Source of the DNA: Rhizobium leguminosarum bv. trifolii WSM1325 | GTDB taxonomy: Bacteria > Pseudomonadota > Alphaproteobacteria > Rhizobiales > Rhizobiaceae | DNA: 64,000 nt | Assembly (NCBI GenBank): GCA_000023185.1 | Contig: CP001622.1 | Span: forward strand, 4,618,501-4,682,500 | Direction: 5' to 3' | Shown: piece by piece, positions 6,391 to 27,032 of the stretch | Position numbering within the stretch: position 1 is the stretch's first letter | Layout of the letters: each line of letters begins with the position of its first letter | Made by a program: the position numbers and the translations under genes | Notes under the pieces: generated by a model | What the model saw: only the letters and a program-made list of their open reading frames with translations | The model's database searches: none | Told to the model about the DNA's origin: nothing

Positions 6391-7386
6391 TCAACGACCA
6401 TTCGGATAGCGGTCGCGCCATGCCATTTGCGCGCCCTCGACCGGAAGGGCGGTCGCCGCGTAGACGCCACGGGCGATCGCCCGCGCCATGACGATGGTCG
6501 CAAGGTGGCAAAGCTCCATCAGGCTCGCCATGTCGTCTCTTCGATGCTTGGCCGTCGAAGCGGCAAAGACGGTATCACCGTCGAGTGGCAGGTGCGCTGG
6601 CAGCAGTGCCCTGGCAAGGCCGTCATGGCCGGCGAGCGAAAGCCTGTGCGCCTCGGCCTTCGTCAGCTGCGCGTCGGTCACCACCGCGCCGATCGTCGTT
6701 GCCGGCGTGTTCATGCCCTTGAGCCGCATCCGGTGGTCGGCCACATCAGGCATGCCGAGCCCGCCGAATTCCGCGTCTTTTTCGAAAGGTGCTGCCCAGA
6801 AATGCGGCCCGTCGCCGATCGTTGCGGAGCCGAGCGCATTGACTGCGACGATCGCCGCGATGCGATGCCCGGTGCTGCTGACGGCGCTGGCCGAGCCGAG
6901 CCCGCCCTTGACGGTGGCCGTCGTCGCCCCTGTGCCTGCACCTGTCGTGCCGAGCGCGAATGTGCCCTTGGCCGCAGCCTGCAGTGCCGTATAGCCCATG
7001 TCGCGATAGGGGGAGTGAAGGCCCCAATCCTTGTCGCCGCCATTCAGCAGGTCCATCAGGATCGCCTGCGGCACGATCGGGATGCGCACCGACCCGACGG
7101 CAAAGCCGCGGCCGCGCTCGCGCAGGCCCGCCTGCACGCCGCCGGCGGCATCCAGCCCGAAAGCCGAGCCGCCGGAGAGCACGAAGGCATCCACGGCATT
7201 GACGGTCATCGACGGATCGAGCAGGCCGGTGTCGCGCCCGCCCGGCGCACCGCCGAGCACCGTGCCGGATGCGACGGCCGGTTCGTCGAAGACGATGACC
7301 GTGACGCCGGAACCGAGCGCAAGGTCGGTCGCATGGCCGATGGAAAGACCTTCGATATCGGTGATGAGATTGAGAAGATCGGGCAA
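6391..7386 (-). CDS. P1 (DmpA/S58) family peptidase
   Basis: An autoprocessing N-terminal-nucleophile hydrolase of about 331 residues, like L-aminopeptidase/D-Ala-esterase DmpA. Typical blocks are seen: ITDIEGLSIGHATD, an NAVDAFVLSGGSAFGLDAAGG segment and a DGDTVFAAST segment. The ATTIGAVVTD segment is where family members self-cleave and expose the nucleophile. The frame stays open to 7482, but the upstream part is repeat DNA. I therefore choose TTG at 7386, which has AAGGA seven bases before it and gives the usual N-terminus. It heads the leftward group with the LysR, binding protein, permeases and amidase, suggesting a peptide or amide hydrolysis route. Confidence 0.85.
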   Translation of the reverse strand: MPDLLNLITDIEGLSIGHATDLALGSGVTVIVFDEPAVASGTVLGGAPGGRDTGLLDPSMTVNAVDAFVLSGGSAFGLDAAGGVQAGLRERGRGFAVGSVRIPIVPQAILMDLLNGGDKDWGLHSPYRDMGYTALQAAAKGTFALGTTGAGTGATTATVKGGLGSASAVSSTGHRIAAIVAVNALGSATIGDGPHFWAAPFEKDAEFGGLGMPDVADHRMRLKGMNTPATTIGAVVTDAQLTKAEAHRLSLAGHDGLARALLPAHLPLDGDTVFAASTAKHRRDDMASLMELCHLATIVMARAIARGVYAATALPVEGAQMAWRDRYPNGR

Positions 7387-7809: not shown

Positions 7810-8330
7810 AGATAGAACTCCTGCCGCGCGACATGCGCAGCCATGGCGAATTGACTTGTCTGGTACCGTTGAAAGGAGGACGAACGTCACATTCGACAGT
7901 TCGGGCGGGAGAGGGCGCCCGGACGGTCATTGCCAAGCACAGATCGCCCAAGGAGATCGGCGAGAATATCGATGTCTATCATGCTCGTTCCTTGTGTTGG
8001 CGTTGCACTTGAGTGGTCCCGGTAGAGCCCGGGGCCGGTGAAGGCTGTCTTCTATAATCCACTAACTTGGTAGAGATTACCTGATAGCCTGTCAGAAACA
8101 TATTCCGAAACGTGTCAAAATATCGACGATCCGAAAAAATTCATTCCGTCACAGCCCGAACTTACAGAAAGAAACATATCAGCTCTTCGTTAAATTCGCA
8201 TGACAGAATCGAACTTCGATCGATCACAGCGGCAGACATAAGAAGCCTTGCTGTATGAGGCAATGGCCCGTTTCATTAAAAATCGAAATGCCTCGAAATG
8301 ACCGATTTGGTTAATGCTGGAAGCCCTGTG
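7810..8330. other. Gene-free stretch of about 520 bases
   Basis: No convincing gene on either strand. The part from about 8050 to 8290 is distinctly AT-richer than its surroundings. The left end must hold the promoter of the 64-residue gene; I could not assign a clear -35/-10 pair. I see no repeat of the families found elsewhere in the window. Confidence 0.5.
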
Positions 8331-11252
8331 TCACCAGCCTTCTTCGAGCACCTTCTCCAGCGTGTCCGCGAAAAAATCCGCGCTGTCGATGCTGAGGCAG
8401 AGCGGCGGTTTGATCTTCAGCACATTTTGGTGATCGCCGGTCGGCTGCATGATGACGCCGAGGTCGAGAAGCCGGTCGCAGATTGCAGCCGTCTCTTCCG
8501 TCGCCGGCTCCAGCGTCGTTCTGTCGCGGACGAATTCGAGGCCGAGATAGAGGCCCATGCCGTGCACGGCGCCCGCAATCGGATGGCGGTCGATCAGCGC
8601 GGCGAGCCGCGCCTTCAGATGATCGCCGACCGCCCGGGCATTTTCCTGCAACTTTTCCTCGGCCATGATGTCGAGCACCGTCATGCCGGCGATGCAACTG
8701 ACGGGGCTGCCGCCGGTGGAGGAAAAGAAAGTGCCCTCCTTCTCCAGCGATTGCGCAATCTCCCGCGTGGTGATGACGGCGCCGAGCGGATGGCCGTTGC
8801 CCATGCCCTTGGCGACGGTGATGATATCAGGCACGACGCCCTGCTGCTCGAAGCCCCAGAAATAGTGCCCGAGCCTGGCATAGCCGACCTGCACTTCGTC
8901 GGCGATGCAGACGCCGCCGCGAGCGCGTACCTGCGCATAGAGCTCCTTGAGATAGCCTTCCGGCAATGGAATGCCGCCGGCATTGCCGTAGACCGATTCG
9001 GCGATGAAGCCCGCAAGGCCTTCGCCCGCAGCATCTATTGCCTCCAGCACCGGCGTCGCCATGCCGAGATAATCCGCTGCCGTATCGGGACCACGGAAGT
9101 CGCCGCGATAGGTGTTCGGCGAAACGATGGTATGCACCCAGTCCGGCCGGGTGGTCGGTGCCTGCGGATTGTCGGCGATCGAGGTGGAGACGGCGTCGCT
9201 CGCCGCTGACCAGCCATGATAGGCTTCGAGCAGGCAGAGCATGTTGCGCGCGCCGCTATGGGCTTGCGCCAGCCGAAGCGCCAGATCGTTCGCCTCCGAG
9301 CCGCTGTTGACCAGGAAGACCGCATCGAGCCCATCCGGCGACAGGGCGGCGAGGCGTTCGGAAAATTCTGTAATCGCGGCGTAGTGAAAGCGCGAATTCG
9401 TGTTGAGCCGCAGCCATTGCGCGCTGATCGCCGCCGCGAGCTTGGGATGGCCATGGCCGAGAATGGTGACGTTGTTGACCATGTCGAGATAGGCGCGGCC
9501 CTCGACATCGAACAAATGCTCCTTCCAGCCGCGCTCGATCTGCGGCGGCGCCGCATAATAATTCTTCTGCGGCCTTGCGAGATGCGCCCGCCGCCTGGCG
9601 AAGAGTTTGGCGGTTTCAGGTTGCGGCGCATCCGCTTGCGGGCTGAGAAGCAGCGAAGGCGAAGGGCAGAGCACCGACCAGGCCGCCGCCGTGCGCGGCG
9701 TCGCAAAAAGCGGCGGTTCGAGACCGGCGACGCTGCAAAGCTGGACGCGCAGCCCGCCGAGCGACGACGCCTCTCCGAAAACAGTGCCGAGCGAATCGCC
9801 GGCGGCGATCTCGGCTCCATCCTCGACGGAGAGGTCGAGCCCGTCGAGATGCAGGGTCATCGTATCGCTGGCGAGCGTCAGATGCTGGTCCTTCCAGCCG
9901 ATGCGGCCGGCAAAGGGCGCGGCAATCGCGCTGCCTGCGGCAAGGCATATGTCGACATGCAGAGCGCAGGTCGCCTGTCCCTTCGCGGTTCCCGCGCGGG
10001 AAAGCCGATATTCGCCGTAGCGCGTCGCTGCCGTACCGTTTTCGGTTGCCATGCGGGCAAGCAGCCGCCAGTCCATGTCCGTATTCAGCCAGTTGCCGGC
10101 GGAAAAATGCGGGCTCCGTACCCCAAGATCGACATAGGCGATCCCGGCGGGATCGATGTCGGGCAGCAACGGCAGCCATCCCGATGTTTCCGGCGCGGTG
10201 ACATCTACGCCGGCTGCCTTGAGGATCGCGGCTTCCATGAGATCGAAGGGAACCGACATCGCCGTATCGAAGATCGCCCGCTCGCGGTCGAGATTGTCGC
10301 GGACATAGTCATTGTCGGGATCGACCGAAATCTGCTGCTCGCCGCTGGCGACGAGAATGACCGCGCGTGCGACGATCAGCGGCCAGAGCGCCTTCAGTTC
10401 CTCCTCGCTCAGCGGATAGATCGCCTGATAGGCGGTGACGGCGGGCAGAATATGAAAGGGGTCGCCATCGGCCTGATGCAGCAGCGAAGCGCAGGTGACG
10501 GCGAGATCGCCGACCAGCCAGCCGCGGATGATGTCGCCGAAATCGATCACCCCGTCGGGGATGATATGGCCATGGGCGTCACGGTGGCCGACGACATTGT
10601 CGCCGGTGACGTCGTGATGCACGGCCTGTAGCCGAAGCGCCGGCGCCAACGGCTGGATGCGGCGGACGGCCATCACCATGGTCTTGGCGATCCGGTCGCG
10701 CGCCGCACTGTCGGTGATGGCCGAAAGCAGCTGCACGGCAACGGGACCTGCCCGTCTGAGATCCCATTGCAGGCTGCGGTCGAGACCGGGATGGTTGAAA
10801 TCGGCAAGCGCCTGCGCCAGCCTGGCGCAGAGCGCGCCCAGCGCCGCCACGGAAGCCGGCGCTAGATAGGTCAGCTCCGTCAGCCCCTCGCCTTCCAGAT
10901 ATTCCAGCAGCCGGACCTGATAGCCCTGCCCGCGCACGGTAAGGACGACGATCTCCCGCCCCTCATTGGTGGGGATCACCTTCGGAACGCGCGGCGCATC
11001 TTGCCGGCTTTTGAGGTGACGGATCGCCGCATTCTGTGCTTCGAGCTCACGGATATCGTAGGCGGCGTGGCAGATCTTCAGGACGTAGCGACCCCTCTCG
11101 CTATCGACGCGATAGTTTCGATCCTGCTGGCTGCCGAGTTCGGCAAGCGTGCCGGATAGGCTGTAATGAGCAAGGAGGATCTCTTCCGCATCAGTGGCGG
11201 TCACATCGGGGCGCGGCAGCGCCATGCGATCAACAAGCGCCTCGTCGGTCAT
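8331..11252 (-). CDS. Trimodular fusion: APH-type kinase, degenerate M23-like module, class-III PLP aminotransferase/phospho-lyase
   Basis: A 973-residue cytoplasmic fusion. Residues about 30-340 form an APH/choline-kinase-like domain with the catalytic loop HHDVTGDNV (Asp214, Asn219) and DFG-like IDFGD (Asp237). Residues about 415-515 resemble an M23/LytM beta fold: LHVDICLAAGSAIAAPFAGR is like its first metal motif, but the usual HxH is replaced by LRVQL. Residues about 545-973 form a class-III aminotransferase fold with SGSEAND, the cofactor Asp785 in ADEVQVGY and the PLP lysine Lys815 in AKGMGNG. Kinase plus class-III enzyme mirrors hydroxylysine kinase and phospho-lyases of the AGXT2L type. 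A phosphorylate-then-eliminate reaction on an amino alcohol is therefore likely, but the substrate is unproven. GGAGGGG precedes the ATG. Confidence 0.85.
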   Translation of the reverse strand: MTDEALVDRMALPRPDVTATDAEEILLAHYSLSGTLAELGSQQDRNYRVDSERGRYVLKICHAAYDIRELEAQNAAIRHLKSRQDAPRVPKVIPTNEGREIVVLTVRGQGYQVRLLEYLEGEGLTELTYLAPASVAALGALCARLAQALADFNHPGLDRSLQWDLRRAGPVAVQLLSAITDSAARDRIAKTMVMAVRRIQPLAPALRLQAVHHDVTGDNVVGHRDAHGHIIPDGVIDFGDIIRGWLVGDLAVTCASLLHQADGDPFHILPAVTAYQAIYPLSEEELKALWPLIVARAVILVASGEQQISVDPDNDYVRDNLDRERAIFDTAMSVPFDLMEAAILKAAGVDVTAPETSGWLPLLPDIDPAGIAYVDLGVRSPHFSAGNWLNTDMDWRLLARMATENGTAATRYGEYRLSRAGTAKGQATCALHVDICLAAGSAIAAPFAGRIGWKDQHLTLASDTMTLHLDGLDLSVEDGAEIAAGDSLGTVFGEASSLGGLRVQLCSVAGLEPPLFATPRTAAAWSVLCPSPSLLLSPQADAPQPETAKLFARRRAHLARPQKNYYAAPPQIERGWKEHLFDVEGRAYLDMVNNVTILGHGHPKLAAAISAQWLRLNTNSRFHYAAITEFSERLAALSPDGLDAVFLVNSGSEANDLALRLAQAHSGARNMLCLLEAYHGWSAASDAVSTSIADNPQAPTTRPDWVHTIVSPNTYRGDFRGPDTAADYLGMATPVLEAIDAAGEGLAGFIAESVYGNAGGIPLPEGYLKELYAQVRARGGVCIADEVQVGYARLGHYFWGFEQQGVVPDIITVAKGMGNGHPLGAVITTREIAQSLEKEGTFFSSTGGSPVSCIAGMTVLDIMAEEKLQENARAVGDHLKARLAALIDRHPIAGAVHGMGLYLGLEFVRDRTTLEPATEETAAICDRLLDLGVIMQPTGDHQNVLKIKPPLCLSIDSADFFADTLEKVLEEGW

Positions 11253-17602: not shown

Positions 17603-17661
17603 TGACGGTCGTCGGTTTTCCTACATCGGGGAAGCGGCCTATTGCCGGCAGGAGAGTTCCC

Positions 17662-17994
17662 ATGCGGCCAATGATGATGCTTCTGATATTGCTCGTTGCC
17701 GTCTCGAGCCTCGCCCCGGCGTCCGCCTTTGCCGTCGACTGGACGAAATCCGTCGATCCGGGCGTTCAACCTCTTTATCCCTACAAAGGTCTTCCCGGCG
17801 TCAAGGCGCAGCCGGACAAGAAGGAAGAGGAATCCTACAATTGCCGCACCGAAACCGTGCAGATCCGCCGCCGCTATGACGAGATCTTCCGTTCGGGCGG
17901 CATGCCGACGCTGATGTATGTCTGCGAACGCGACGGCTTCATCTCGATGGACGACAAGGTTCCGCTCCGCGGCCACTATCAGCCGGTGCGGTGA
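17662..17994 (+). CDS. Small secreted hypothetical protein downstream of the Wzz-like gene
   Basis: A 110-residue exported protein. ATG at 17662 is chosen because AGGAG lies seven bases before it; the longer frame to 17599 has no such signal. Residues 1-24 (MRPMMMLLILLVAVSSLAPA then SAFA) are a signal peptide. The mature part has two cysteines (61 and 88), which could form a disulphide in the periplasm, and charged segments QPDKKEEESYN and RRRYDEIFRSGG. It follows the Wzz-like gene by 59 bases and is probably in the same operon, hinting at a role in polysaccharide export. No family recognised. Confidence 0.75.
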   Translation: MRPMMMLLILLVAVSSLAPASAFAVDWTKSVDPGVQPLYPYKGLPGVKAQPDKKEEESYNCRTETVQIRRRYDEIFRSGGMPTLMYVCERDGFISMDDKVPLRGHYQPVR

Positions 17995-18000
17995 GGGGTT

Positions 18001-18324: not shown

Positions 18325-19083
18325 TCACGCCTTGCGGCAGACACAGTAGCCGCCCGGAGAGGAGGACAGCACGAGCTTGCCGTTCAGAACCGGATCGACT
18401 TCGAAGCGGTCGGTTTCCGCCAGATAGTCGGTGACGGCCTTCAGCGGCTCATTGCCGCGCAGCCATACCTTGGAGCGCTTTGTGAAGGCCTGTTCCTCGG
18501 TCAGGTGGCCGATGAACGTGTCGGCGACGACGAGGTAGCAGCCTTCCGTTACCAGCGGACCGTAGGCGCGGCATTCCGCCAGAACATGCTCGTAGGAATG
18601 GTCGCTGTCGAGCACCACCATCACCCGGGCCCCCGGCGGGATCTCGGCCTTCACGGCGGCAAGCACGTCGTCGTCGACCGAACCGCCCTGGATCATCTTG
18701 ATGCGGCTCGACATCGGATGGGATTCGATCGACTCGCGATTATGGGCGCGGATGTCGATGTCGATGCCGACAACCTTGGCCGCGTCGTTGCCCATGGCGG
18801 CGAGGATCGACGCCATGAAGATCAGCGAGCCGCCGCGCGCGATGCCGGTTTCGATGATGACATCGGGCTTGGTCGCCCAGATGACTTCCTGGGTCGCCAG
18901 GATATCGACCGGAAGCTGGATGATCGGTACGCCCATCCATGACCAGAGATAGGAATAGTCGAACTTGTCGAGCCCGATCAGCGTGTTCAGCGATTGTTGG
19001 AAACTTGCCTCATCCTTGCCGAGCGCAAGCGACATTTCCCGCTTGTGGGCTTCGAATTCGAGACGATCGTCCTTCGTGGTCAT
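18325..19083 (-). CDS. CmcI/RhmA-type hydroxylase/O-methyltransferase-like protein, copy 1
   Basis: A 252-residue protein of the cephalosporin-hydroxylase (CmcI) family, whose members include sugar O-methyltransferases. The Rossmann-type SAM region is seen as VIIETGIARGGSLIF and VVGIDIDIRAHNR; VMVVLDSDHSYEHV is the family acidic/His motif. It lies 32 bases downstream of the DegT aminotransferase, so it most likely methylates a sugar of the local glycan. A second copy on the opposite strand at 20550 is about two-thirds identical by eye. Substrate position is unknown. Confidence 0.82.
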   Translation of the reverse strand: MTTKDDRLEFEAHKREMSLALGKDEASFQQSLNTLIGLDKFDYSYLWSWMGVPIIQLPVDILATQEVIWATKPDVIIETGIARGGSLIFMASILAAMGNDAAKVVGIDIDIRAHNRESIESHPMSSRIKMIQGGSVDDDVLAAVKAEIPPGARVMVVLDSDHSYEHVLAECRAYGPLVTEGCYLVVADTFIGHLTEEQAFTKRSKVWLRGNEPLKAVTDYLAETDRFEVDPVLNGKLVLSSSPGGYCVCRKA

Positions 19084-19115: not shown

Positions 19116-20264
19116 TTAGACCGACTGCCGCAATGCTGTGCTGTTGTGATAGATCCGCCCGGCCGCCACATCGAGCAGCGTTGCCGCCACCCGGTCGATA
19201 TCGGCTTCGCTCATGTCGTGATAGCTGGGCAGGTTGATCGCGCGGCCCGGAATGCTCCAGGCGTTCACGTTCTGTGGCCGATCCTCAAACATGGAGAGGC
19301 TGGAGAGGGGATAGAAGAAGACGCGCGCGTCGATATTGGCGGCCTCGAAGGCCTGCTGCATCATCTCGCGGGTGGTACCCGTCGACGGATGAAAGACTGC
19401 GGTCGGCATCCACGCACCGTTGATCGTGCCGCTATATTCCGGGTTCATCGAGATGCCGGGCAGGGCGGAAAGCCGGACCATATAGGCCGCGAGGATCTCC
19501 CGCTTGCGGGCGACGAGCTCTTCGATGCGTTCGAGCTGTGCGCAGCCGATGGCAGCCTGGATGTTGGACATCTTGTACTTGAAGCCGATCTCGTCGGGCC
19601 AGAACTGCTTGGTTTGGCCGCGCGCTCGGCCGTGGTTGCTGAGCGTCAGCACCCGTTCGTAAAGCGCGGCGTCGTTGGTGACGAACATGCCGCCTTCGCC
19701 CGTCGTCAATGTCTTTGTGCCGTGGAATGAGAAGGTGCCGAAGGCGCCCATCGAGCCGGCGCGGCGGCCGTGCCAGACGGAGCCGACCGCTTCGGCCGCA
19801 TCTTCGATCACCGGAATGCCCGTCCGCTTGCCGATCTCCAGCAGTGCGTCCATGTCGCAGAGATTACCGTAGAGATGCGTGGCGATGATGGCCTTCGTCT
19901 TCGGCGTGATATGGCGCTCGACCTCGCCCGGATCGATGCACCAGGAATCCGGCAGCACGTCGACGAAAACCGGCTTGGCGCCGAGATGGACGATCGGCGA
20001 GACGGTGGCGACCCAGTTGGTGTCAGCGAGGATCACTTCGTCGCCTTCGCCGACGCCGAGCGCGGCCAGGCCCATGTGCATGGCGCCGGTGCAGCTCGAG
20101 GTCGCGATGGCGAAGCCGCTGCCGAGATAGGTCTTGAAGTCGCGTTCGAAGCGGTTGATGTAGTCGTAGCAGTGTGCGCCCCAGCCGGTCGCTGCCGCAT
20201 CTGCGGCATAATCGGTTTCAAGCTGGGTGATGGAAGGCTTGGTGTAGAAGATCCTGTTTGTCAT
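19116..20264 (-). CDS. DegT/DnrJ/EryC1/StrS-family sugar aminotransferase
   Basis: A 382-residue PLP enzyme of the sugar aminotransferase family. The PLP lysine is Lys184 in SFHGTKTLTTGEGG, and Asp155 in VIEDAAEA contacts the cofactor nitrogen. These enzymes add an amino group to C3 or C4 of a nucleotide keto-sugar. A keto-sugar supply is visible in the same cluster (RfbF and RfbG), so a CDP- or other NDP-4-keto-6-deoxy sugar is a plausible substrate. Its 5' end is where the large direct repeat begins: a diverged copy of its first 30 or so codons recurs at 22033. Confidence 0.9.
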   Translation of the reverse strand: MTNRIFYTKPSITQLETDYAADAAATGWGAHCYDYINRFERDFKTYLGSGFAIATSSCTGAMHMGLAALGVGEGDEVILADTNWVATVSPIVHLGAKPVFVDVLPDSWCIDPGEVERHITPKTKAIIATHLYGNLCDMDALLEIGKRTGIPVIEDAAEAVGSVWHGRRAGSMGAFGTFSFHGTKTLTTGEGGMFVTNDAALYERVLTLSNHGRARGQTKQFWPDEIGFKYKMSNIQAAIGCAQLERIEELVARKREILAAYMVRLSALPGISMNPEYSGTINGAWMPTAVFHPSTGTTREMMQQAFEAANIDARVFFYPLSSLSMFEDRPQNVNAWSIPGRAINLPSYHDMSEADIDRVAATLLDVAAGRIYHNSTALRQSV

Positions 20265-20411
20265 GCCGCTAATTTCTGTTGAATTGAAATCAAGACGCAG
20301 GCGCCCGCCACGACGCTAGTTTTCGAAGCTGGCGCGAGGCTCACATGATGATGTGCCGGGCGAGATCGTGCTCGTGGAACACGAGATTGGGCAGGTAGCC
20401 CGAGTGCTACG
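20176..20411. repeat. Direct repeat, left copy (about 236 bases)
   Basis: This segment holds the first 30 or so codons of the DegT gene, the intergenic spacer, and a copy of the last 70 bases of the GT2 gene. The right copy at 22033-22267 matches it at all but about 15 positions plus one single-base indel (my count). Here the DegT end is intact and the GT2 end is the relic. Confidence 0.9.
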
Positions 20412-20549
20412 CTGTTGACCGTGATCGCTCCAGCCTCACATAAGGTTCCGATGAAAGATGGAAAATGAGACATTTGTGCCCGCTTGCCCTTCGCAAGGAC
20501 GTCCGCCGCAAATGCGCCACTTGTTCAGGTAGGAAGGTTTGTAAAGTTC

Positions 20550-21302
20550 ATGACCACCAAGGATGATAGGCAGGAGTTCGAGGCCAGCAAGCGCGAAATG
20601 AGCCTCGCTCTAGGTCGTGACACGGATGTCTTCCGTCAGACGCTCGATACTCTGGTGAGCCTGGACAAATACGACTATTCCTATCTGTGGTCTTGGATGG
20701 GCATGCCAATCATCCAAATGCCCGCCGATGTGATGGCCACCCAGGAAGTTATCTGGGCCACCAAGCCAGACGTGATCGTTGAGACGGGCGTGGCGCGTGG
20801 CGGATCGATGATCTTCCAGGCTGCCATGCTACAACTGATTGGCAAGGGCAAGGTGGTCGGCGTAGATATCGACATTCGCGCCCATAACCGTCAGGCGATC
20901 GAATCCCATCCGATGGCGCATCGCGTCGAACTGATCGAAGGGCCATCCACCTCCGCCGAAACCATGGCGAAGGTCAAGGCGTCTATCCCTGAAGGGGCCT
21001 CGGTCATGGTCATTCTCGACAGCGATCATAGCAAGGCGCATGTACTGGATGAATTACGCAATTACGCGCCGCTGGTGACAGACGGCCAGTATCTCGTCGT
21101 TGCCGATACGATCCTTGGCCGTTACGAACCTTCCCAGGTCCCGACCAAACGCTCCAAGGTTCTCTTACCTGGCGATGAGCCCTTGGTTGCCCTCAATGAT
21201 TACTTGCAGGAAACGGATCGTTTCGAGTTGGATACCATCATCAATGGAAAGCTCGTTCTCTCCAGTTCTCCGGGCGGCTATCTTCGATGTGTGCGGTCCT
21301 AA
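20550..21302 (+). CDS. CmcI/RhmA-type hydroxylase/O-methyltransferase-like protein, copy 2
   Basis: A 250-residue paralogue of the 18325 gene, on the opposite strand. ATG at 20550 gives the same MTTKDDR start as copy 1; upstream extension to 20484 has no family match. The SAM-type motifs are VIVETGVARGGSMIF and VVGVDIDIRAHNR, with VMVILDSDHSKAHV where copy 1 has SYEHV. It lies inside a block bracketed by the 236-base direct repeats and is followed 82 bases later by an acyltransferase. It has probably arrived with that block and may modify a different position or sugar from copy 1. Confidence 0.82.
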   Translation: MTTKDDRQEFEASKREMSLALGRDTDVFRQTLDTLVSLDKYDYSYLWSWMGMPIIQMPADVMATQEVIWATKPDVIVETGVARGGSMIFQAAMLQLIGKGKVVGVDIDIRAHNRQAIESHPMAHRVELIEGPSTSAETMAKVKASIPEGASVMVILDSDHSKAHVLDELRNYAPLVTDGQYLVVADTILGRYEPSQVPTKRSKVLLPGDEPLVALNDYLQETDRFELDTIINGKLVLSSSPGGYLRCVRS

Positions 21303-21384
21303 GCATGCGATTGATGCGATCAAATCAAAAATTCTCGTCGATTAGTCGACGTACTTTGGGGCCGACGGAGTATGGAGGTATCGG

Positions 21385-21963
21385 ATGCATTTAGGCTCGA
21401 CATTTTACGACGAGACTGAACTAAGATCCCTGCCGTTCCGGCATCTTGGGTCGAACGTAAAGATTAAAAGAACCGCCGGACTTTTTTTCGTGGAGAATAT
21501 CTCCATCATGGATGACGCGCGGATCGATGATTTCACCATCATTGTGGCAAGTAGGGAACACGTTGAGATTGGATGTAATGTGCACATCGCGTCACAGTGT
21601 TATATATCTGGGAGTGACGGCTTCGTCATGGAGGACTTTTCGGGTTTGGCACCAGGTGTCAAAATCTACACCTCAAGCGATGACTACACGGGTGAAAAGA
21701 TGACCAACCCGACTCTGCCGCGCCATCTTATTGGCGGCCCTGCTGGGAAAGTCGTCCTCCGCAAACATGTGATTATCGGCTCCAACTCGGTCGTTTTGCC
21801 TAAGGTAACAATTGAGGAGGGAAGTTCTGTAGGTAGCCTATCTCTCGTAAATAAGTCTCTCCCTGCATGGGGAGTATACGCTGGTATCCCCGTCAGGCGT
21901 TTACGCGATAGATCTCAAAATCTTCTGATCCTTGAGAAAGAACTGCGAGCATCACAGGCCTGA
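21385..21963 (+). CDS. Left-handed beta-helix acyltransferase
   Basis: A 192-residue acyltransferase of the hexapeptide-repeat type. Repeats run from about residue 30 to 160, with the sequence GSDGFVMEDFSGLAPGVKIYTSSDD and the typical C-terminal GGPAGKVVLRKHVIIGSNSVVLPKVTIEEGSSVGS. GGAGGT five bases before the ATG sets the start. Base composition is clearly lower in GC than in its neighbours (near half instead of above 60 percent), a sign of transfer. It would acetylate, or N-acylate, a sugar. It is probably co-transcribed with CmcI copy 2 inside the repeat-bracketed block. Confidence 0.85.
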   Translation: MHLGSTFYDETELRSLPFRHLGSNVKIKRTAGLFFVENISIMDDARIDDFTIIVASREHVEIGCNVHIASQCYISGSDGFVMEDFSGLAPGVKIYTSSDDYTGEKMTNPTLPRHLIGGPAGKVVLRKHVIIGSNSVVLPKVTIEEGSSVGSLSLVNKSLPAWGVYAGIPVRRLRDRSQNLLILEKELRASQA

Positions 21964-22032
21964 TAGGCAAGCTATCGCCCCGCAGAGCGTGATCCACGCG
22001 CTGAAGCGGTCGAGATTGTGGACGGCAACCTC

Positions 22033-22267
22033 GCGCCCCAGCCGGTGGCGGCGGCATCGGCAGCATAATCCGTTTCGAGCTGGGTGATCGAAGGCTTGGT
22101 GTAGAAGATCCTGTCTGTCATGCCGCTAATTTCTGTTGAATTGAAATCAAAACGCAGGCGCCCGCCACGACGCTAGTTTTTGAAACTGGCGCGAGGCTCA
22201 CATGATGATATGCCGGGCGACATCGTGCTGGTGGAACACGAGATTGGGCAGGTAGCCGAGTGCTACG
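22033..22267. repeat. Direct repeat, right copy (about 235 bases)
   Basis: The partner of 20176-20411, offset by 1857 bases. Here the GT2 end is intact (it holds the functional stop at 22198) and the DegT start is a cut-off relic with no promoter-distal continuation. Differences from the left copy cluster in the DegT-coding part, where many are third-base changes. Confidence 0.9.
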
Positions 22268-23436
22268 AAATACTCCCGGTCGTTGTCGGCGCTGACGAAG
22301 ACGGCGGTGCTTTCCAGCGGACTGCCGCTGAGTTTCACCGTCACCTTCACCTTTTCGCTGAGGCCGAGTTCGCGCATCAGGCCTTCGAGCGCGGTGATTT
22401 CCGGGAAACCGCCGAGAAGCAGCGTATCGATGCCGATTGCCGAATTCACTTCGCTCACCAGCGTCTGGATGGCGACCATCAGGGGCAGCCTTTCACGGAA
22501 ACTGCGAATTTCCGGGTGGTCGAGCATCCCGCCCCACATGATGCGGGTATAGAGTTCATAGGCCTTGATGAAGTTCTTGCGCTCCGCCCAGAAGCGAAAG
22601 GCGACCGCCATGCGATTGAGAGTGAAGATCTTGCACATCTCGTCATACTTGAGATGCGTCTCGGGCGTCAGGTTCAGCGCCCCGCGCCTGGCTCCCGTAT
22701 AGAGAAAATATTCAAGCCCGCCGCGATAGCGATCCCAGCTCGTCATGACGTCGTTGGTGCCTTCTTGCGGACGGTCGCGGACGATCGCCGAATTGGCGAT
22801 GGAACGGTAGAACGGGCGCTGCAGGAAGGAGACCGCGCCCTGATCGAGGAAATGCGCAAGGAACGGGAACGGATAGAAGCAGAATTCCCGCGGGATCCAG
22901 GCCGACCGCAGGGTCGACGAGCGGTAGATCGCGATTTCCGGAAAGATGTGGCGTTCGCAGATATACTGGAAGACGTCGCCGAAACTTCCCTGCGGAAACT
23001 TCCGATCCTCGTTGACATTGTAGAACTTCGTGATGTCGGTTTTGGCGACTTCGTCGTAGAGGAACCACGGCGCATGGGCGCAGGTCACCTCCTGATTGTT
23101 GTCGAGATATCTGATGGTTTCGGCCACCGCATCGGCAATCAGGATGTCATCGTCGGCGAGATAGATGAGGTATTCGCCCTTGCCGAGGCGCAGAGCGCTC
23201 GTGACGTTTGCCGCGGCGCCGGCATTGGTTTCACGCTTGTAGTAGCGGATCGGCAGCCCGCGGGCGATGAATTCCTCGACCACCTGCTGCGTGCCATCCG
23301 TGGAGGCATTGTCACAGATCACGATTTCGAAGGGAAAGTCGAACTTGTAATCGTTCTCGCAGTAGGTCAGCGCGTTTCTGAGATAGGCTTCGCGGTTATA
23401 GGTCGGGATGCAGATGCTGAGTTTGATACCGCTCAA
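22198..23436 (-). CDS. Family 2 glycosyltransferase
   Basis: A GT-A fold, GT2 transferase of about 412 residues. The N-terminus IKLSICIPTYNREAYLRNAL, the EIVICDNASTDGT block and the YLIYLADDDI metal motif (DDD) are standard. It is soluble with no clear membrane helix. The start is TTG at 23436, overlapping the TGA of the epimerase gene (TTGA), with AGGAG eight bases upstream. It should transfer a sugar from the nucleotide sugar made by the upstream genes to a lipid-linked glycan. It is long for GT2, so a C-terminal domain of unknown role follows residue 260. Confidence 0.88.
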   Translation of the reverse strand: MSGIKLSICIPTYNREAYLRNALTYCENDYKFDFPFEIVICDNASTDGTQQVVEEFIARGLPIRYYKRETNAGAAANVTSALRLGKGEYLIYLADDDILIADAVAETIRYLDNNQEVTCAHAPWFLYDEVAKTDITKFYNVNEDRKFPQGSFGDVFQYICERHIFPEIAIYRSSTLRSAWIPREFCFYPFPFLAHFLDQGAVSFLQRPFYRSIANSAIVRDRPQEGTNDVMTSWDRYRGGLEYFLYTGARRGALNLTPETHLKYDEMCKIFTLNRMAVAFRFWAERKNFIKAYELYTRIMWGGMLDHPEIRSFRERLPLMVAIQTLVSEVNSAIGIDTLLLGGFPEITALEGLMRELGLSEKVKVTVKLSGSPLESTAVFVSADNDREYFVALGYLPNLVFHQHDVARHIIM

Positions 23437-25207: not shown

Positions 25208-26268
25208 GATACTGTTTCCTCATATGCCGCGATCTGGCCGAGCGAGAAGGCGCGCATGTCTACGCCCTCGCGGTTGGCCTTGTACCAGGCGGCAGTCCAG
25301 TCGATTGTCTGTTGCAGGCTGAGCCGCGGGCGCCAGCCGATGGTGTCGAGCGCAAGCGCCGAGCTCAGCGTCAGCGCCGGAGCTTCCGGCAGATGTTCGC
25401 CTGGCGCAAGCCGCCACACGTCTTCGACGCAGTGCGCGCGTCCGAGCGCTTCGGCGAGTTCGGAAACAGTGGCGAAGCTTTCGGGATGCGGACCGAAATT
25501 CAGTGCATCCGGCAGATCCCTGCCGCGCTGCTGCGTCAGCACCTCAGCGAAGCTCAGATAACCGCCAAGCGGCTCCAGCACATGCTGCCAGGGGCGGATC
25601 GCCGCGGGATAGCGCAGCATGATCGGTTCACCGCCTTCGAAAGCGCGGATGAAATCCGGGATCAGCCGGTCCTTCGACCAGTCGCCGCCGCCGATGACAT
25701 TGCCGGCGCGGACCGTGGCGAGCCTGAGATCGCGCCCCTTGAAGAAACTGTCGCGGTAGCTCTGGCAGACGAGTTCGGTGCAGGCCTTGGAGTTGCTGTA
25801 CGGATCTTTGCCGCCGAGCACATCGGTCTCGACGAAGGGTATGCCGCTGCCATTATTGGCGTAAACCTTGTCGGAGGTGATGACCAGCACGGTCTTGACG
25901 GAGGGCGTCTGCCTGACCGCGTCGAGAACATTTGCCGTTCCCATGACGTTGGTCGAAAAGGTCTCGGCCGGGTTCTCATAAGAACGCCGCACCAGAGCCT
26001 GCGCCGCCATATGGATGACGATCTCCGGTTGGAAGCGCCTGGAGAGATTAAGAACCGCCTCGGCGTCGCGGATATCGACGATGTGATGGCCGCGATCGTC
26101 CCAGGGAGCAAGCTTCCGATAGAGCGATGGTTCGGTCTCAGGCACCAGCGACACCGCGGTAACCTCAGCGCCGAGCCGCTCCAGCCACAGGGAAAGCCAC
26201 GATCCCTTGAAGCCGGTATGTCCGGTCAGGAAAACCCGCCGCCCGTTCCAGAAGTCCGTCAGGCCCAT
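25204..26268 (-). CDS. rfbG: CDP-glucose 4,6-dehydratase
   Basis: A 354-residue SDR dehydratase. The NAD-binding LTGHTGFKGSWLSLWL and the TSDKVYANN block are diagnostic of CDP-glucose dehydratases, and the catalytic Tyr and Lys are in DPYSNSKACTE. It converts CDP-glucose to CDP-4-keto-6-deoxyglucose. The start is taken as ATG 26268 (GGAAA upstream), overlapping RfbF by 10 bases; a GTG nine bases earlier is possible. It sits between the cytidylyltransferase and the C-methyltransferase, and the three overlap, so expression is coupled. Confidence 0.94.
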   Translation of the reverse strand: MGLTDFWNGRRVFLTGHTGFKGSWLSLWLERLGAEVTAVSLVPETEPSLYRKLAPWDDRGHHIVDIRDAEAVLNLSRRFQPEIVIHMAAQALVRRSYENPAETFSTNVMGTANVLDAVRQTPSVKTVLVITSDKVYANNGSGIPFVETDVLGGKDPYSNSKACTELVCQSYRDSFFKGRDLRLATVRAGNVIGGGDWSKDRLIPDFIRAFEGGEPIMLRYPAAIRPWQHVLEPLGGYLSFAEVLTQQRGRDLPDALNFGPHPESFATVSELAEALGRAHCVEDVWRLAPGEHLPEAPALTLSSALALDTIGWRPRLSLQQTIDWTAAWYKANREGVDMRAFSLGQIAAYEETVS

Positions 26269-27032
26269 AGTTTCCACGGTGCCTTTCCGGAATTCCAGAG
26301 CTCTTCCAGGTGGTTGCGCTCGCGGAGCGTATCCATGGGCTGCCAGAAGCCATCATGCTTGAAGGCGGCGAGCTCGTTGTTGGCGGCGAGCCATTCCAAC
26401 GGTCCGGCTTCCCAGATCGTGTCGTCGCCCGGGATGAGATCGACCACCGACGGGTCGAGCACGAAGAAGCCGCCATTGATGCGCTGGCCGTCGCCCCTCG
26501 GCTTCTCGATGAAGGAGGTGATGAACTGCCCCTCGATATTCGTGGCGCCGTAACGTCCGGGCGGAGTGACCGCGCACATCGTCGCCTTGAGGCCATGGCT
26601 GCGATGGAACGCGACTTCGGCGGCGATATCGACGTCGCCGACGCCGTCGCCATAAGTCATGCAGAAGGGTTCGCTTGGCGTCAGATGGTCGCGAATGCGC
26701 CCGAGACGGCCGCCGGTCATCGAATGCATGCCGGTATCGACCACGGTCACGCGCCAGTTCGGTCGTGTGCCGCCGTGATAGTTGATGCTGTTGGAGGCGA
26801 GGTCGACGGTGATGTCGTTGTGGTGCAGAACAAGGTTTACGAAATATTCCTTGATCAAATAGCCCTTGTAGCCTGCGCAGATGATGAAATCATTGAGCCC
26901 GTGATGGGCATAGATGCTCATGATGTGCCAGAGGATCGGCATGCCGCCGATTTCGACCAGAGGCTTGGGTCGGATACTGGTCTCCTCGGCAAGACGAGAG
27001 CCAAGGCCACCGGCGAGAATTACGACTTTCAT
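26259..27032 (-). CDS. rfbF: Glucose-1-phosphate cytidylyltransferase
   Basis: A 257-residue nucleotidyltransferase. KVVILAGGLGSRLAEETSIR is the nucleotide loop with the family-specific SRLAEET run, then RPKPLVEIGG and the metal-binding TYGDGVGDVD. It makes CDP-glucose from CTP and glucose-1-phosphate. It is the first gene of the leftward nucleotide-sugar cluster, so the cluster promoter should lie just right of 27032, in the gene-free stretch that also carries the 27369-27484 palindromes. Confidence 0.95.
   Translation of the reverse strand: MKVVILAGGLGSRLAEETSIRPKPLVEIGGMPILWHIMSIYAHHGLNDFIICAGYKGYLIKEYFVNLVLHHNDITVDLASNSINYHGGTRPNWRVTVVDTGMHSMTGGRLGRIRDHLTPSEPFCMTYGDGVGDVDIAAEVAFHRSHGLKATMCAVTPPGRYGATNIEGQFITSFIEKPRGDGQRINGGFFVLDPSVVDLIPGDDTIWEAGPLEWLAANNELAAFKHDGFWQPMDTLRERNHLEELWNSGKAPWKLWA

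What the first reader, a model, noticed from the sequence alone, without database searches (positions are those of the whole stretch)
20176..22267. Sugar cluster interrupted by a block bracketed by 236-base direct repeats
Copies at 20176-20411 and 22033-22267 both contain the DegT-start/GT2-end junction. In the left copy the DegT end is functional, in the right copy the GT2 end is. Between them lie two genes on the opposite strand (CmcI copy 2 and a lower-GC acyltransferase). That is the signature of single-crossover (Campbell-type) integration of a circle carrying a related junction, followed by divergence. The old leftward operon was split and new sugar-decorating genes inserted.
Basis: partly seen in the sequence, partly recalled or inferred. 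Interest (0 to 1): 0.7.

Follow-up and report, generated by a model that had tools for sequence, protein, structure and literature searches.

The report
Half-finished swap of sugar genes
In this root-nodule bacterium, foreign genes for decorating a surface sugar appear to have been spliced in cleanly at one end and carelessly at the other, leaving a scrap of the displaced gene behind; it is a clear snapshot of how surface coats get remixed, not a new kind of system.

Summary
The repeats are real: 20176-20411 and 22033-22267, 93% identical, around a CmcI-type methyltransferase gene and a hexapeptide acyltransferase gene on the opposite strand. Of 25 Rhizobium genomes (of 148 searched) in which I scored the junction, 21 have it uninterrupted and single-copy. 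Only this genome and R. johnstonii 3841 have two copies around the block. R. leguminosarum Norway has the block but no GT2 and no right copy; G116 has no block and a truncated GT2. The copies are two old alleles, not one sequence that diverged after integration. The left copy and most of DegT are a foreign type (A); the right copy is the native type (B), left over from the displaced DegT. A DegT tree rejects native ancestry (p-AU 4e-5), while wzz and GT2 look native. A small circle crossing over in the repeat would not replace DegT outside it. Best fit: one-sided recombination, homologous on the left and end-joined on the right, then ordinary spread. The 1.56-kb block also sits, 97% identical and with the same right edge, beside a catalase gene in a distant rhizobium. 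Another repeat-bracketed sugar block occurs in the same cluster of G053. New member of a known kind.

The parts
18325..19083 (-). CmcI copy 1 (PF04989), at or near the left end of the shared tract
19116..20264 (-). DegT/DnrJ/EryC1/StrS aminotransferase, foreign (A-type) allele; closest solved sequence perosamine synthetase
20176..20411 (.). left repeat copy: A-type DegT start, spacer, dead GT2 3' stub (15 nt lost just after about 20411 relative to 3841 and Norway)
20419..21981 (.). 1.56-kb two-gene block; 97% identical copy in another genomic setting in Rhizobiales R129_N (L048)
20550..21302 (+). CmcI copy 2, 250 aa, 67% identical to copy 1
21385..21963 (+). hexapeptide acyltransferase, 192 aa; best solved relatives 3vbi-3vbp over residues 5-188
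21982..22032 (.). about 51 nt of filler of unknown origin at the illegitimate junction, shared with 3841
22033..22267 (.). right repeat copy: B-type (native) junction
22033..22121 (-). 5' remnant of the displaced native DegT gene
22198..23436 (-). intact GT2 glycosyltransferase reading frame, of native type
20417..20426 (.). left member of a short direct repeat (GAGCGTGATC in 3841 and Norway, one change here)
21985..21994 (.). right member of that short direct repeat, just right of the block

Best explanation
An A-type lineage carried DegT, the 3' end of GT2 and, next to it, a two-gene block (O-methyltransferase plus sugar acyltransferase). A DNA piece with [CmcI1 - DegT(A) - GT2 stub - block] entered a B-type R. 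leguminosarum-complex cell. Its left side recombined homologously around CmcI1 and replaced the native DegT. Its right side was end-joined inside the first ~90 bases of the native DegT, leaving that scrap in front of the intact native GT2. The junction sequence therefore appears twice. The finished tract then spread to other lineages by ordinary homologous recombination. Shown: DegT of foreign type, native-type wzz and GT2, allele type of each copy, a tract shared by three carriers. Inferred: donor, direction, order of events and end-joining. Likely function (inferred): the block O-methylates and N- or O-acylates a 4-amino-6-deoxy sugar of the surface polysaccharide made by this CDP-sugar cluster.
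For: Of 8 allele-diagnostic sites in the repeat, 3841-left and Norway-left are A at 8, 3841-right is B at 8, G000-left is 5 A / 2 B / 1 neither and G000-right 1 A / 6 B / 1 neither. DegT tree, 24 rows: carriers group with A (100/100), close relatives separate (100/100); AU test against carriers plus close relatives p = 4.4e-5. The wzz tree places all three carriers among the five close relatives (100/98); the GT2 tree groups G000 and 3841 with G147 and G011 (99/96). Over 19.25-20.15 kb identity to five close relatives is 83-94% while G000, 3841 and Norway stay at 96-100%. Single-copy junction in 21 of 25 scored genomes. Six Ku homologues over Pfam's cut-off in this genome. One-end-homologous, one-end-illegitimate integration is described (PMC3240628, abstract).
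Against: No source of the 51-nt filler was found, so the right-hand join is not reconstructed. Three different right neighbours begin at the same block edge, 21981 within about 3 nt, which random end-joining does not predict. CmcI1 separates A and B poorly, so the left crossover is only roughly placed, and relatives carry an indel near 18.24 kb. In the 19700 bin of DegT this genome is closer to B than to A relatives, so the foreign gene may itself be mosaic. In the GT2 tree G053, a close relative, lies apart, and G123 and G116 were too short to include. G000-left has 2 of 8 B-type sites.
Confidence: 0.6

Rival explanations
1. Campbell-type integration: a circle with a B-type junction and the block integrated by one crossover into an A-type strain; the product later moved into B strains.
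For: Two junction copies bracket the block; A and B alleles sit in the expected places if the host was A-type. Later transfer could supply the B-type GT2.
Against: Needs an A-type host plus later replacement of GT2 by B; no plasmid record matched in near mode, though records of this genome or very near it may be left out there; Norway would need a deletion ending at the block edge also seen in R129_N.
Confidence: 0.15
2. Element insertion: the block is a mobile unit with fixed ends that inserted, with a 10-nt target duplication, at a junction that was already duplicated; Norway is an adjacent deletion.
For: Same right edge in three settings; block 97% identical in a distant rhizobium beside a catalase gene; GAGCGTGATC flanks the block in 3841.
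Against: No open reading frame of 100 aa or more in the block besides the two named, neither a transposase; no terminal inverted repeat, only one internal 7-nt match; the left 10-mer overlaps sequence partly shared with R129_N, so it may not be target DNA; no block-free duplicated junction among the 25 scored genomes.
Confidence: 0.2
3. Local tandem duplication of the junction in one lineage, with later insertion and divergence.
For: Repeats are near each other and co-linear.
Against: The copies are two alleles found separately in different lineages, with mismatches concentrated in DegT.
Confidence: 0.03

Closest known systems
Homology-facilitated illegitimate recombination (PMC3240628; abstract and list of sections seen)
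   Same: One end joined by homology, the other by illegitimate joining, giving foreign DNA next to retained native DNA.
   Different: There it is an observed laboratory event; here it is inferred from an old natural junction, and the tract has since spread.
Sequential displacement of effector genes leaving orphan immunity genes in Vibrio cholerae T6SS clusters (PMC5361080; passages seen)
   Same: A homologous anchor on one side, a new module inserted, a displaced native piece kept downstream, later spread by homologous recombination; the authors offer the same mechanism as a possibility.
   Different: Here the module is sugar-decorating genes and the leftover is a dead 5' scrap of an aminotransferase gene in front of an intact glycosyltransferase gene.
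O-antigen and capsule module exchange by recombination in flanking genes (recalled)
   Same: Surface-polysaccharide genes exchanged between lineages by recombination in shared neighbours.
   Different: Normally both ends are homologous and no repeat is left.
Solved acyltransferase 3vbi-3vbp (that this is AntD of anthrose synthesis is recalled)
   Same: Aligned over residues 5-188 of 192.
   Different: Substrate here is untested.

Membership tests
Homology-facilitated illegitimate recombination product | One end of the foreign tract lies in homologous sequence without a novel joint | tested here: met
   Left side is co-linear with relatives apart from an indel near 18.24 kb; no sharp joint, the identity pattern shifts somewhere in 18.2-19.3 kb.
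Homology-facilitated illegitimate recombination product | The other end is a novel joint lacking long homology | tested here: met
   Block / 51-nt filler / B-type DegT at 21981-22033 matched in full only in G000 and 3841 among 148 genomes.
Homology-facilitated illegitimate recombination product | Microhomology or end-joining signature at the joint | tested here: inconclusive
   Donor side unknown because the filler was not found elsewhere.
Campbell single-crossover integrant | Sequence outside both repeats is host sequence | tested here: not met
   DegT outside the left repeat is A-type while wzz and GT2 are B-type; could be met only if the original host was A-type.
Campbell single-crossover integrant | A circular donor carrying the junction and block | tested here: inconclusive
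   No match in 72,556 plasmid records in near mode, where records of this or a very near genome may be left out; other circles not searched.
Transposon or insertion sequence | Transposase gene and terminal inverted repeats | tested here: not met
   Only CmcI and acyltransferase as reading frames of 100 aa or more in the block; no terminal inverted repeat found.
Transposon or insertion sequence | Target site duplication | tested here: inconclusive
   10-nt GAGCGTGATC in 3841, one mismatch here; the left copy overlaps sequence partly shared with R129_N.
RMNT_CmcI (PF04989) | Pfam gathering score 23.2 bits | tested here: met
   232 bits; not the NCBIfam rhamnosyl O-methyltransferase equivalog, 94 bits against a cut-off of 400.
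AntD-type sugar N-acyltransferase | Acts on a nucleotide-linked 4-amino-4,6-dideoxy sugar | not testable with these tools
   Sequence similarity only; substrate recalled.

The most novel reading that the evidence does not exclude
The 1.56-kb methyltransferase-acyltransferase block is a small mobile gene cassette without its own transposase, with a fixed right end, moved in trans between rhizobia and able to re-decorate whichever surface sugar cluster it lands in.
Probability: 0.15. Interest if true: 0.55.

Novelty: new member of a known kind. Interest (0 to 1): 0.35.

Why it matters
It shows, base by base, how a surface-polysaccharide cluster of a model legume symbiont (3841 shares it) can gain decorating genes without losing the old glycosyltransferase. 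Large unique repeats in such clusters can be scars of half-homologous gene replacement and need not mark circles or transposons; comparing the alleles of the two copies tells these apart. A separate bracketed sugar block in the same cluster of G053 suggests that such events may recur here.

Tried and rejected
Local duplication then divergence: rejected by allele typing. Transposon: no transposase or terminal inverted repeats. Plasmid carrier: no match in near mode. Origin of the 51-nt filler: no convincing match in 148 Rhizobium genomes; the call, at E up to 10, lists many short chance hits and was cut. Read on the minus strand the filler is open and in frame with the GT2 stub of 3841, which made me suspect a divergent GT2. 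The joined 46-aa reading found ordinary GT2 genes, aligned to the filler half at low identity, and in the listed hits no gene with that half conserved outside G000 and 3841, so this stays a guess. A database search with the end of GT2 gave 13 ordinary GT2 proteins; I did not read their sequences. Empty site of the block in R129_N: no relative in the listing covered both sides. Published account of this locus: searches gave listings (two were empty) and I saw no title naming it; PMC11406972 holds none of the prefixes RL023-RL026 in its main text, but I do not know the 3841 tags of this locus. AntD in the library: one paper listed, not read. Promoter scan: 1 found against 1.5 expected, uninformative. 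Tree rows under 78% identity or 70% length were left out gene by gene; the downstream methyltransferase tree was too weak to use (deepest fork 40/68).

Full report
Observation. The pair of direct repeats is real: 236 and 235 nt at 93.2%. Each copy holds the first 89 bases of DegT, a 76-base spacer and the end of GT2. DegT uses the left copy and GT2 the right. The interval holds CmcI copy 2 and a hexapeptide acyltransferase on the plus strand. A self-comparison of 21 loci (18 kb of the window and 20 relatives) found this pair in this genome and in 3841 only.

Where it is. The window lies on a 4.77-Mb contig of a 7.42-Mb Rhizobium genome. The neighbourhood is a polysaccharide cluster: glucose-1-phosphate cytidylyltransferase, CDP-glucose 4,6-dehydratase and an RmlC-type epimerase over their NCBIfam cut-offs, a C-methyltransferase, and a chain-length-type protein, over Pfam's cut-off for its GNVR domain but below the NCBIfam cut-offs.

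Relatives. Of 148 Rhizobium genomes, 69 had any match, and I scored the GT2-DegT junction in 25. It is uninterrupted and single-copy in 21: G011, G147, G053, G023, G045, G005, G041, G040, G056, G123, G047, G108, G007, G033, G115, G019 and G124, G102, G151, G103, G129 (from overlapping match coordinates). G123 has an internal GT2 deletion away from the junction. G116 has the junction, no block, and lacks window 22254-23366 of GT2. Two copies with the block: this genome and 3841. Norway has the left copy and the block, then jumps to 23440, so GT2 and the right copy are missing. The other 44 matching genomes had more divergent or only short matches and were not scored; of these I looked at G135 alone, which has DegT next to GT2 and no block.

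Two alleles. The junction alignment shows two types. Sites where at most one of 8 A genomes and at most one of 5 B genomes departs give 8 diagnostic sites inside the repeat: 3841-left 8 A, Norway-left 8 A, 3841-right 8 B, G000-left 5 A and 2 B, G000-right 1 A and 6 B. I chose the two sets after seeing the alignment. The copies are therefore mostly two older alleles. Most mismatches lie in the DegT part (9 of 89, against 6 of 136 in the rest).

Which side is foreign. Trees: for wzz (19 rows) the three carriers fall among the five close relatives (100/98). For GT2 (19 rows) this genome and 3841 group with G147 and G011 (99/96); G053 lies apart, and G123, G116 and Norway are absent for lack of length. 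For DegT (24 rows) the close relatives sit in one clade with three other genomes (100/100) and the carriers join the A group (100/100), as sister to the sampled A genomes. Forcing carriers and close relatives together costs 93 log-likelihood units, p-AU 4.4e-5 on 19 rows. The CmcI1 tree groups the three carriers (98/95) but separates A and B poorly; the downstream methyltransferase tree is weak. Sliding identity shows the three carriers at 96-100% mutually over about 18.35-21.95 kb, except 93-97% in the two bins from 20300 to 20600. Outside, values are mostly 85-98%, with single bins at 70-71% and 99%. Over 19.25-20.15 kb this genome is 83-94% identical to the close relatives. To four A genomes it is 91-96% in the bins from 19250 to 19700 and 94-96% at 20000, but 87-90% in the 19700 bin, lower than to B, and 85-89% in the 19850 bin. 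The simplest reading is a foreign, perhaps mosaic, tract from about CmcI1 to the block's right edge.

Right-hand joint. After 21981 come 51 nt of filler. The 86-base query holding it is 98% identical in 3841 and has no convincing match in the other genomes of 148. Then B-type DegT starts. Norway joins the block at the same edge to the start of the GT2/RmlC region, and R129_N joins it to unrelated sequence. R129_N (G188) is not R. leguminosarum to judge by its own DegT locus, 77% identical. There the block lies near a catalase gene, 44 nt from a 50-nt stretch at the contig end that recurs in its genome and in a relative at 98%. A less similar copy (80%) in G194 follows what looks by eye like the end of an IS30-type transposase (recalled motif, not tested). 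The fixed right edge is the strongest point for the mobile-unit rival. A 10-nt repeat GAGCGTGATC flanks the block in 3841. Because the left one overlaps sequence partly shared with R129_N, I do not call it a target duplication.

Mechanism. A small circle crossing over in the repeat would leave DegT outside the repeat native, and it is not. Campbell integration into an A-type host and later transfer is possible but needs more steps. One-sided homologous, one-sided illegitimate integration fits best. This genome has six Ku homologues over Pfam's cut-off (the same search rang in 1 of 14 control genomes), so end-joining is plausible, though not shown. Precedents: PMC3240628 (abstract and section list) and PMC5361080 (passages), where Vibrio modules displace effector genes and leave orphan genes.

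Recurrence. G053 carries a 241-nt direct repeat (97.5%) spaced 4.4 kb, about 2.5 kb left of its DegT-GT2 junction (window 17755-17999), around a block with a hexapeptide-like protein below cut-off, an epimerase and another GT2. Part of the DNA upstream of its native cluster is repeated inside too. I did not trace its history.

Function (inferred). CmcI2 is 67% identical to CmcI1 and 83-85% to its best relatives outside its own cluster of sequences, named Rhizobium or Allorhizobium where a name is given. The acyltransferase is rare: in a pattern-based scan of the species collection only 3841, Norway and R129_N had near copies, three others 40-43%. Five of the other 396 order genomes had matches at 37-43% (E up to 1e-30). 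In the large protein database the next relatives are at 73%. Its best solved relatives are 3vbi-3vbp, which I recall as AntD, an N-acyltransferase of anthrose synthesis. DegT is closest to perosamine synthetases, which are 4-aminotransferases (recalled). I therefore propose O-methylation and acylation, perhaps N-acylation, of a 4-amino-6-deoxy sugar. No function was tested.

Noticed in passing
L056 (G053) 2647-2887 and 7067-7307: A separate sugar-gene block bracketed by 241-nt direct repeats (97.5%) in the same cluster; it holds a hexapeptide-like protein, an epimerase and a GT2, plus a copy of cluster-upstream DNA.
   Followed up: partly
L048 (R129_N) 95-1657: Near-identical block near a catalase gene in a distant rhizobium, 44 nt from a 50-nt repeat at the contig end that may be an IS end.
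   Followed up: partly
L064 (G116) near 8280 and L063 (G123) near 9800: Deletions in the GT2 gene of two close relatives, besides its absence in Norway: this glycosyltransferase is damaged or missing in 3 of 25 scored genomes.
   Followed up: no
window about 18240: 14 of 20 relatives have about 370 extra bases here compared with this genome, near the left end of the foreign tract; 3841 differs by another indel.
   Followed up: no
window 25400-26300: The CDP-glucose dehydratase region is itself mosaic: identity to 3841 and four close relatives falls to 76-86% while G011 stays at 96-98%.
   Followed up: no
L052 (3841) 1683-1795 and 17657-17772: A 116-nt direct repeat (88%) near both ends of the fetched stretch, about 16 kb apart.
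   Followed up: no
window 20296-20312 and 22153-22169, minus strand: The same terminator-like hairpin in the GT2-DegT spacer of both repeat copies; 7 such sites found in 20150-22300 against 1.5 expected.
   Followed up: no
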